Position numbers and translations under genes: made by a program. The notes beneath the pieces were generated by a model. The model saw only the letters and a program-made list of their open reading frames with translations. It had not been told where the DNA came from and searched no databases. Shown piece by piece: positions 14,181 through 50,019 of a DNA stretch of 64,000 nt. The DNA comes from Fimbriimonadales bacterium. Lineage in GTDB: Bacteria; Armatimonadota; Fimbriimonadia; Fimbriimonadales; GBS-DC. How positions within the stretch are numbered: the stretch's first letter is position 1; every line of letters begins with the position of its first letter. The stretch spans positions 1,639,221 to 1,703,220 of the forward strand of contig AP024673.1 in NCBI GenBank assembly GCA_025998675.1, in the 5' to 3' direction.

Positions 14181-14629
14181 ATACCAGTTCGCGCGGCAGA
14201 CCTCGTAAAATATGAGCGCATGGACAGCCCTCACCCCCTGTGTCCCCCTCTCCCAACGGGTTGGGAGAGGGGGATAGCGCGTCGCACGAGGCTCGAGCGA
14301 CTCCCCTCTCCCGCTTGCGGGAGAGGGGCTGGGGGTGAGGGCGATCAAGCGCACGCCTCTCAATCTCAACAGGTTGAGTGGGGGATAGCGCGTCGCACGA
14401 GGCTCGAGCGACTCCCCTCTCCCGCTTGCGGGAGAGGGGCTGGGGGTGAGGGCGATCAAGCGCACGCCTCTCAATCTCAACAGGTTGAGTGGGGGATAGC
14501 GCGTCGCACGAGGCTCGAGCGACTCCCCTCTCCCGCTTGCGGGAGAGGGGCTGGGGGTGAGGGCGATCAAGCGCGCGGCTGTCGCGGCATACCCAGAATA
14601 TTTACGAAACCTAACGCGCCGATTGGTAT
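14181..14629. mobile_element. MITE-like element, 227-bp family, expanded by two 111-bp units
   Basis: Left end ATACCAGTTCGCGCGG (14181) and right end CGCGCCGATTGGTAT (to 14629) are imperfect inverted repeats. Inside is the CCCTCACCCCC...GGGGGTGAGGG core with CCCCTCTCCCGC hairpins. Three tandem units of 111 bp (for example GATAGCGCGTCGCACGAGG starting 14273, 14384, 14495) are present instead of one. Total length 449 is exactly 227 + 2 x 111, the length of the complete copy at 49734-49960 plus two units. No gene is seen; open frames across it are an artefact of the multiple-of-three unit. Confidence 0.85.
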
Positions 14630-39344: not shown

Positions 39345-39492
39345 GCACAGGTTCTGGGGTTTTGTCAGTGGGGGGGCGATTCAATCGAAGCTTAACCGTG
39401 CTTTTCAGCGAATGCGGAGTCTTATACCAAATGCGCAGTTAAAGTTCGCAAATCGCCGACGCCTGTAGCCCTCACCCCCTTTGTCCCCCTCT

Positions 39493-39500
39493 GGTATAAT
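39493..39500 (+). promoter_or_regulatory. Promoter at the IS110 left end
   Basis: GGTATAAT forms the very first bases of the element; transcription would start near 39507, at the 5' end of the predicted bridge RNA. In a circular intermediate the right end would supply upstream sequence, TTGACTTTTC, as a possible -35 (TTGACT at 40677-40682). Confidence 0.65.
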
Positions 39501-39504
39501 GCCA

Positions 39505-39700
39505 GCGAAAAAGCTTGGCGGGGTTCCCCGCCAAGCCGACGCGGGGCGGAGCGTCATCCCCTCTGGAACCATAAGTCCGCTGGGAGCCTACGCCCGCCCC
39601 GCCTGCGAACCGTAGCCCGAACCCTTGCACGGGCAACAAGCCCGCAACACCAGAACGGTGCAAAGGCACGGTTCACCATACAAGCATACCCTATCACAGG
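39505..39700 (+). ncRNA. Predicted IS110 bridge RNA
   Basis: Three hairpins in series. The first is an 11-bp perfect stem, GCTTGGCGGGG (39513-39523) with CCCCGCCAAGC (39526-39536). The second, GCGGGGCG (39541-39548) with CGCCCCGC (39595-39602), encloses a loop with CCCCTCT (39558-39564), equal to the left target flank plus CT core, and TGGGAG (39581-39586), complementary to CTCCCA at the right target. The third, GAACCGT (39607-39613) with ACGGTTC (39668-39674), encloses ACCCTTGC (39621-39628), equal to the element's right end, and ACCAG (39649-39653), complementary to CTGGT at its left end. This is the layout of target-binding and donor-binding loops in IS621-type bridge RNAs. Confidence 0.85.
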
Positions 39701-39712
39701 AGGCGAACAACG

Positions 39713-40663
39713 ATGACACACAACACACAACAGACGGCTCTGTATCTCGGCATCGATGTGGGCAAGTACACGCTTACGCTTGCCACCTATCCCACCCCCC
39801 AAGTGTGGGAAATCCCCAACACGCCCGAACAGCATCACGCCCTCGTGCAGCACCTGGCGCAACTACCCATCCAGCGCGTGCTTTTGGAAAGCTCAGGCGG
39901 CTATGAAAAAGGCGTCGTGAACGCCCTCCAGCAAGCAGGCATCCCTGTGGTCGTTGTGCCCGCCCAGCGCGCCCGCTACTTTGCCAAGAGCCTGCGGGGC
40001 AACCTCAAGACCGACCGCGTAGACGCCCAGTTGCTGGCGCACTTTGCCAGCTGCTATCCTGCGCCCGACACAACGGAACCTGCGCAAGTGCAGGCGGAGC
40101 TGAAAGAGTTGTGGGCGCGTCGGGAGCAGTTGGTAGGGCAGCTGGAGGCGGAGAAGAAGCGGCTGCAGGTGGTACACGCCCCAAGCGTGCGGGCGTCGTT
40201 GGCGCGGATGATTGCCGTGCTGCAGGAGGAGCTGGCGCAGATAGAGGCACAAGTCGCGGCGTTGGTGGCATCGGACGAGGCGTTGGCGCATCGGTTTGCG
40301 TTGCTGCAGACGGCGGTTGGGGTTGGAGCCATCGTGGCGTATGGGTTGCTTGCGGAGTTGCCTGAGTTAGGTCAAGTCTCGCGAGAGGCGATAGCGGCGT
40401 TGGCGGGTTTAGCGCCTGTGCGTCGGGAGAGCGGTCGCTGGCGTGGGTCTGCGCGGATAGGCGGGGGGCGTCGGCGGGTGCGTCGGTTGTTGTATCTGGC
40501 GGCGGTGGTTGCGGTGGCTCACGATGCGCGTTGGCGGGCGGTTTATGAGGGGTTAGTGGCGAAGGGGAAGGCAGTGAAGGTGGCGTATTGTGCGGTGGCT
40601 CGTCGTTTATTGGTGGTATTGAACGCGATGGTGCGTGATGGGAGGGCGTATGCGCGTGTGTAG
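39713..40663 (+). CDS. IS110-family transposase (bridge recombinase)
   Basis: A 316-residue IS110 transposase. The N-terminal RuvC-like DEDD domain has Asp15 (LGIDVGKYT), Glu59 (VLLESSGGYEK), Asp101 and Asp104 (KTDRVDAQLLAHF). A coiled coil (about 125-185) leads to the C-terminal Transposase_20 domain with GVGAIVAYGLLAELPELG and the region APVRRESGRWRGSARIGGG, where Ser240 is the likely nucleophile. It is full length and seems intact. Translation starts at ATG 39713 behind AGGAGG, just downstream of the predicted bridge RNA. Confidence 0.95.
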   Translation: MTHNTQQTALYLGIDVGKYTLTLATYPTPQVWEIPNTPEQHHALVQHLAQLPIQRVLLESSGGYEKGVVNALQQAGIPVVVVPAQRARYFAKSLRGNLKTDRVDAQLLAHFASCYPAPDTTEPAQVQAELKELWARREQLVGQLEAEKKRLQVVHAPSVRASLARMIAVLQEELAQIEAQVAALVASDEALAHRFALLQTAVGVGAIVAYGLLAELPELGQVSREAIAALAGLAPVRRESGRWRGSARIGGGRRRVRRLLYLAAVVAVAHDARWRAVYEGLVAKGKAVKVAYCAVARRLLVVLNAMVRDGRAYARV

Positions 40664-40921
40664 GGGAGCAAGGGACTTGACTTTTCAATACCCTTGCTCC
40701 CAACGGGTTGGGAGAGGGGGATAGCGCGTCGCGCGCTGCACACACGGCTCTCCCCTCTCCCGCCGCGCGGGAGAGGGGCTGGGGGTGAGGGCAAAACGCG
40801 CGTGGCTCTGGCTGTAGACGCACGGCAATTACGAACTCTGACAGCGCAGTTGGTATGATTACCGCGACGGCGCTTCGCTCTACAAGCAGGGATTCGTCCC
40901 CCGCTGTCGAATCGCCTGTGT

Positions 40922-49642: not shown

Positions 49643-50019
49643 ACCAACCTCCCCTGTAAGGATGGGATTCGCCTGAACGCGCGTGGTTTCCTGCTGATGG
49701 GCGCGGCAGGAAAGCGGCGCTGAGAGGCGAATGATACCAACTGTGCGGTCATCGTTCGTAAATCGGCGCTGTATGATCGCCCTCACCCCCTTTGTCCCCC
49801 TCTCCCAACGGGTTGGGAGAGGGGGATAGCGTACTGCGCGACGCTCGCACAGCTCCCCTCTCCCGCCGTGCGGGAGAGGGGCTGGGGGTGAGGGCAAAAA
49901 AGCATGCGGCTCTGGCTGCAGGCACACGGCAATTGCGAACTCTGACGGCGCATTTGGTATAAGACAAAAGGCGCGGGGTCTCGCGCCGCAACGACATTGA
50001 GAGGGGGCGTTGCACGATT
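49643..50019. other. Intergenic region containing a complete MITE-like copy
   Basis: The 377-nt divergent gap holds the 227-bp element (49734-49960), the GGGGAGG site of the leftward gene, and a 59-nt stretch before lnt with AAGGCGCGGGGTCTCGCGCC, a small hairpin. No other gene is visible. Confidence 0.6.
49734..49960. mobile_element. 227-bp MITE-like element, complete copy
   Basis: Inverted ends: ATACCAACTGTGCGGTCATC at 49734 and, in complement from 49960, ATACCAAATGCGCCGTCAGA. Inside are CCCTCACCCCC...GGGGGTGAGGG and two hairpins, CTCTCCCAACGGGTTGGGAG and CCCCTCTCCCGCCGTGCGGG. There is no transposase inside, so it would depend on one elsewhere. Flanks do not show an obvious target duplication. 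Confidence 0.85.

What the first reader, a model, noticed from the sequence alone, without database searches (positions are those of the whole stretch)
39424..40856. Clean IS insertion inside a MITE: 1433 - 1206 = 227 bp
Removing 39493-40698 restores a repeat of exactly 227 bp, equal in length and order to the intact copy at 49734-49960. This fixes both IS ends to the base and shows that there is no target duplication beyond the CT dinucleotide. The target word CCCCTCTCCCAACG occurs in every core copy of the repeat family (14247, 35157, 35207, 49797 regions), so the IS seems adapted to a multicopy, mostly harmless landing site.
Basis: seen in the sequence. Interest (0 to 1): 0.75.

Follow-up and report, generated by a model that had tools for sequence, protein, structure and literature searches.

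The report
Guide-RNA jumping gene inside a repeat
A small bacterial jumping gene of the IS110 family sits cleanly inside one copy of a repeat that its genome carries about fifty times, and it encodes a guide RNA whose two target-reading stretches match that repeat, which would explain why it and its close relatives land there.

Summary
Cutting out 39493-40698 leaves a 227-bp repeat that aligns end to end with 49734-49960, with CT at both junctions. The insert is an intact IS110-group element (PF01548 + PF02371; relative of IS621) with a 220-bp left end that folds as a two-loop bridge RNA (z = -5.1). Loop 1 carries left and right target guides for CCCCT-CT-CCCA; loop 2 carries donor guides for ACCCTTG-CT-GGTAT. 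Both loop rules were checked on distant relatives by permutation. Scanning the emptied window with these guides, all 21 top-scoring CT sites of 6,775, the used site among them, lie in the repeat's hairpins.

The host repeat is MITE-like: inverted ends and identical 3-bp TNA flanks in 18 of 21 copies. Its core is the 'TM' intrastrand-triplex motif (Holder 2015), previously reported without mobile-element links. All nine element ends or remnants found in four species of the genus sit in such repeats, and a 70%-identical relative carries a shifted guide that fits its own genome's repeat variant. More distant IS110s in four other lineages also hit TM-like motifs.

This is a new member of a known kind (IS110 into palindromic repeats), with a clear mechanism. 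RNA expression and activity are untested.

The parts
39493..40698 (+). IS110-group insertion sequence, 1206 bp, one full copy in the genome
39713..40663 (+). transposase/recombinase ORF, 316 aa, intact; DEDD domain (PF01548) and serine-bearing C-terminal domain (PF02371)
39491..39492 (+). core CT at the left junction
40697..40698 (+). core CT at the right junction
39495..39500 (+). TATAAT at the left end: -10 box of the promoter formed when the ends join in a circle
   Evidence: TTGACT-18-TATAAT across the right-end/left-end junction
40677..40682 (+). TTGACT at the right end: -35 box of the same split promoter
39513..39536 (+). 5' stem-loop of the predicted bridge RNA
39541..39602 (+). target-binding hairpin with internal loop of the predicted bridge RNA
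   Evidence: four pairs with changes on both sides against the G008 relative
39556..39564 (+). left target guide ATCCCCTCT (target TCCCCCT-CT: 7 of 9 including core)
39578..39586 (+). right target guide CGCTGGGAG (reads CT-CCCAGCG; target CT-CCCAACG, 8 of 9)
39607..39674 (+). donor-binding hairpin of the predicted bridge RNA
39621..39628 (+). left donor guide ACCCTTGC, matching the right end ACCCTTGCT
39647..39653 (+). right donor guide ACACCAG, matching rc(CT-GGTAT) at 6 of 7
40664..40701 (+). 11-bp perfect inverted repeat GGGAGCAAGGG/CCCTTGCTCCC at the right end, its last CCC being target DNA
39424..39492 (+). left part of the interrupted MITE-like repeat, with CCCTCACCCCC and the 5' arm of triplex motif 1
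40699..40856 (+). right part of the interrupted repeat, with the rest of triplex motif 1 and triplex motif 2 (40750-40791)
49734..49960 (+). uninterrupted copy of the same repeat

Best explanation
This is an IS110-group element that moves by bridge-RNA-guided recombination. When it excises as a circle, the joined ends build a promoter (TTGACT-18-TATAAT) that transcribes the left end as a bridge RNA. Loop 2 of that RNA holds the circle junction (donor ACCCTTG-CT-GGTAT). Loop 1 holds CCCCT-CT-CCC(A/G) in the hairpin arms of a repeat present about 50 times in the genome. The recombinase exchanges strands at the CT cores, leaving the element inside the repeat with no other duplication. Shown: family, ends, empty site, guide matches, and recurrence of the same target in relatives. 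Inferred: transcription, circle formation, present activity, and that the multicopy target was selected because it is plentiful and intergenic.
For: Pfam PF01548 + PF02371; closest solved relatives are the ISCro4 and IS621 transposases. Left end 220 bp, right end 35 bp, the IS110-group layout. RNA fold z = -5.07 with two hairpins; pairs changed on both sides in the relative. Left donor guide matches the element's own right end in distant relatives: summed score 139 against 114.8 expected, maximum 126 of 20,000 permutations. Target loop: mean 12.67 of 16 against 10.51 permuted, maximum 11.73 of 5,000, for 15 elements. Guide scan of the emptied window: all 21 top sites of 6,775 CT sites lie in the repeat hairpins, the used site among them. 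Nine of nine ends or remnants in four species in such repeats. Junction promoter with TTGACN and 17-19 spacing in 8 of 8 distant relatives checked.
Against: The two outer positions of the left target guide do not match the used site (AT against TC), although up to two mismatches are usual in natural IS110s (PMC11208160). The L102 remnant carries CA where its left guide should read the CT core; it lies at a contig end and may be decayed. The genome holds only one full copy, so the within-genome sample is one insertion plus one remnant. No transcript, circle or transposition was observed.
Confidence: 0.93

Rival explanations
1. The recombinase or the host prefers the unusual DNA shape of the repeat (hairpin, triplex or slipped DNA), and the RNA match is secondary.
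For: All hits in the genus are in palindromes that fit a known intrastrand-triplex motif (PMC4666352). Some elements of other families also choose REP palindromes (PMC1525189).
Against: Guides covary with targets across relatives that use unrelated, non-palindromic sites. In G008 the guide and the cut are shifted together by 2 bp inside the same hairpin.
Confidence: 0.05
2. The element did not insert into the repeat; repeat and element came together by homologous recombination or an assembly join.
For: The repeats are numerous and could recombine; many of the related genomes are fragmented.
Against: The window genome is a single contig. The empty site closes exactly at a CT core at the place the guides predict, and a decayed second copy shows the same junction elsewhere.
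Confidence: 0.02

Closest known systems
IS621 (IS110 group, E. coli; Durrant 2024 PMC11208160, companion structure paper PMC11208158)
   Same: Recombinase domains, long left end with a two-loop RNA, CT core, promoter rebuilt at the circle junction, landing in a palindromic intergenic repeat.
   Different: Different guides and a different repeat (triplex motif inside a MITE-like repeat rather than E. coli REP); protein only distantly related (E = 3e-26).
ISPpu9, ISPpu10, ISPa11 and other REP-recognising insertion sequences (Tobes and Pareja 2006, PMC1525189)
   Same: Every copy breaks a REP-type palindrome at one fixed point; ISPpu9 and ISPpu10 show 2-bp direct repeats.
   Different: Only one full copy here; the target repeat is about 227 bp with its own inverted ends and a different palindrome.
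TM intrastrand-triplex motif, TMECO (Holder 2015, PMC4666352)
   Same: The repeat core CCCTCTCCC-loop-GGGAGAGGGG-CTGGGGGTGAGGG has the same three-arm layout and nearly the same letters.
   Different: That study found no link to mobile elements in E. coli; here the motif is carried twice, in opposite orientation, inside a MITE-like repeat and is the target of an insertion sequence.
ISEc21 seekRNA (Siddiquee 2024, PMC11187229)
   Same: Upstream noncoding region gives a target-selecting RNA with matches to both strands of the target, and natural redirection between relatives.
   Different: Other target; tested by experiment there, only by sequence here.

Membership tests
IS110 family, IS110 group | DEDD RuvC-like domain plus C-terminal domain with conserved serine | tested here: met
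   PF01548 76 bits and PF02371 64 bits, both above cut-off; the D/E/D/D positions and the ESG serine align with the ISCro4 transposase
IS110 family, IS110 group | long left and short right noncoding end | tested here: met
   220 bp and 35 bp
IS110 family, IS110 group | insertion at a short core with no larger duplication | tested here: met
   CT at both junctions
IS110 family, IS110 group | bridge RNA with target and donor loops matching target and circle junction | tested here: met
   by sequence and predicted fold only:
IS110 family, IS110 group | promoter rebuilt at the joined ends | tested here: met
   TTGACT-18-TATAAT; activity not tested
IS110 family, IS110 group | circular intermediate and RNA-dependent recombination | not testable with these tools
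   needs PCR, RNA sequencing and a transposition assay
MITE (the host repeat) | terminal inverted repeats, flanking target duplications, many copies | tested here: met
   TACCAA...TTGGTA ends; identical 3-bp TNA flanks in 18 of 21 full copies, TNA on both sides in 21 of 21; about 50 copies
MITE (the host repeat) | autonomous parent with the same ends | tested here: inconclusive
   the two PF01609 transposases of the genome have no TACCAA ends nearby; other transposase families were not searched
TM intrastrand-triplex motif | pyrimidine arm, purine arm and antiparallel purine third arm in one strand | tested here: met
   by letters only, against Table 1 of PMC4666352; folding as a triplex not tested

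The most novel reading that the evidence does not exclude
The intrastrand-triplex (TM) repeats of many bacteria are a shared, convergent landing pad for IS110 elements: distant IS110 lineages have independently tuned their guide RNAs to it, and within one genus the guide follows each host's own version of the repeat, perhaps helped by easy strand opening of the triplex-prone DNA.
Probability: 0.35. Interest if true: 0.65.

Novelty: new member of a known kind. Interest (0 to 1): 0.45.

Why it matters
It gives a nearly complete natural set (guide RNA, filled site, empty sites, a retargeted sister in a related species) for a bridge-RNA element outside the usual model bacteria. It also links these elements to a widespread triplex-forming repeat for which no mobile-element connection had been reported. 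The guide and repeat changing together between species would make it testable how such guides follow a drifting multicopy target.

Tried and rejected
Rfam gave only chance-level hits; no family above threshold matched the left end. An autonomous parent for the MITE-like repeat was sought among PF01609 transposases: two copies, neither with matching ends. A first donor-guide script took the wrong motif in some loci and was replaced by a fairer version that treats own and swapped pairs alike. Relatives without a recognisable left end were dropped from the target-loop permutation test. The idea that the 11-bp inverted repeat at the right end is a second recombination site was considered but has no support.

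Full report
Observation. The insert 39493-40698 (1206 bp) interrupts a repeat; removing it gives 227 bp that align from end to end with 49734-49960. The only ambiguity is the 2-bp CT shared by both junctions, so the statement 'no duplication beyond CT' is right. The equal length is partly chance, because the two copies differ by compensating small indels and full copies elsewhere run 224-227 bp.

What the insert is. One ORF (39713-40663, 316 aa, no internal stop) matches both IS110 Pfam domains and, among solved structures, only the ISCro4 and IS621 transposases. The left noncoding end is 220 bp and the right 35 bp, the layout that characterises the IS110 group (PMC11208160). The genome (2.99 Mb, one contig) has one full copy and one right-end remnant, 79% identical.

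The guide RNA. The left end folds far better than shuffled sequence (z = -5.07) into a 5' stem-loop and two hairpins with internal loops. By the published rule the first loop reads the target and the second the donor. In loop 1 the left strand ATCCCCTCT matches the left target TCCCCCT-CT at 7 of 9 positions, and the right strand CGCTGGGAG reads CT-CCCAGCG against CT-CCCAACG. In loop 2 ACCCTTGC equals the element's right end, and ACACCAG reads CT-GGTAT with one mismatch. Since guides are easy to find after the fact, the rule was tested on distant relatives (about 35-43% protein identity, many phyla). The left donor guide fits the element's own right end far better than those of other elements (139 against 114.8; no permutation of 20,000 above 126). 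The target loop also fits its own flanks better than swapped flanks (mean 12.67 against 10.51; maximum of 5,000 permutations 11.73), with the two target guides most often 24-26 nt apart, as here (24). Scoring every CT site of the emptied window against the guides puts the used site in the top class with 20 others, all in hairpins of this repeat family, out of 6,775 sites.

The split promoter. Joining the ends as in a circle creates TTGACT-18-TATAAT; eight of eight distant relatives checked also join TTGACN to a TA-rich hexamer at 17-19 nt. In the inserted state the two boxes are 1.2 kb apart. That such a junction promoter is rebuilt in the circular form is published for IS110 elements; that it works here is inferred.

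The landing site. The repeat has inverted ends TACCAA...TTGGTA and is flanked by identical 3-bp TNA words in 18 of 21 full copies (TNA on both sides in all 21), so the name MITE is justified. A 3-bp TNA duplication is typical of some IS5-family groups (own knowledge, not tested). Inside, it carries two copies, in opposite orientation, of CCCTCTCCC-loop-GGGAGAGGGG-CTGGGGGTGAGGG. [quoted passage not shown] its authors found no mobile-element association around the E. coli copies (PMC4666352). The genome holds 287 copies of CCCCTCTCCCR against 2 for the reversed control pattern; at the window's density of CT sites that is roughly one CT site in a thousand.

Relatives in the genus. Every element end or remnant found sits in such a repeat: the full copy and the remnant here; in G012 three right ends and one left end; in G010 a mini-element of about 115 bp with both ends; in G008 the left end of a 70%-identical element and a short left-end remnant in another copy of the same repeat. 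That is nine of nine in four species. The G008 element is informative: its donor guides are unchanged, but loop 1 reads TCCCC-CT-CGCC, and the repeats of G008 that carry its site commonly run ATAATCCCC-CT-CGCCCGC (others run ...CT-CTCCCGC). Guide and cut have moved together by 2 bp within the same motif. Its right flank is lost, so the right half of this match rests on the other copies of the repeat.

Beyond the genus. Four loci of more distant IS110s lie in or beside TM-like motifs or close variants: L168 (same phylum, other family; judged by eye), L058 (Pirellulales), L088 (Rhodoplanes) and L053 (Devosia, a variant motif). In L053, L058 and L088 the right target guide reads the right flank at 7 of 7 positions. 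This was noticed while reading about 40 relatives and is not a systematic survey; most of the others use other targets.

Conclusion. The finding is real, and its interpretation is supported and explained by a known mechanism. The element is a new member of the IS110 group; targeting of palindromic repeats by IS110 elements is known (PMC1525189, PMC11208160). What appears new, within the open-access papers searched, is the tie to the triplex motif and the guide that follows each host's version of it.

Noticed in passing
L115 (G010:C20:37283-40305), reverse strand, near the right-end match at 1501-1523: An IS110 mini-element of about 115 bp: left end with the 5' stem-loop fused to the right end, transposase and both guide loops deleted, still flanked by a TM-like site on both sides.
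   Followed up: partly
L132 (G008:C80:4299-4629): A short left-end remnant (ATATTACTACCAGCGCA) in a second copy of the G008 repeat at the same point as the full element.
   Followed up: partly
window 40664-40701: The right end is an imperfect palindrome whose 11-bp arms GGGAGCAAGGG/CCCTTGCTCCC are completed by the CCC of the target, directly after the stop codon; possibly a terminator or chance similarity to the target.
   Followed up: no
L021 (G000:C1:2886177-2886402): One MITE copy is itself inserted in the triplex hairpin of another copy (CCCCCTCTC|ATACC...GGTAT|CACAACGGG, TCA on both sides): nesting of repeats.
   Followed up: no
G000:C1:1294672-1297016 and window 14245-14544: Regular arrays of the triplex motif, about 56 bp apart near 1.29 Mb and 111 bp apart in the window.
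   Followed up: no
L120, L124, L126 (G000) and L119, L121 (G008): A second palindromic repeat (TTTGGAGTGCTGAAGC...GCTTCCGCACTCCA), found many times in both species, in G008 joined to a triplex motif; in G000 some copies lie next to the same ATACCAACTGCGC ends as the MITE.
   Followed up: partly
L168 (G063:C25), L058, L088, L053: Distant IS110 elements in other lineages whose flanks are also triplex-type motifs, suggesting repeated independent targeting.
   Followed up: partly
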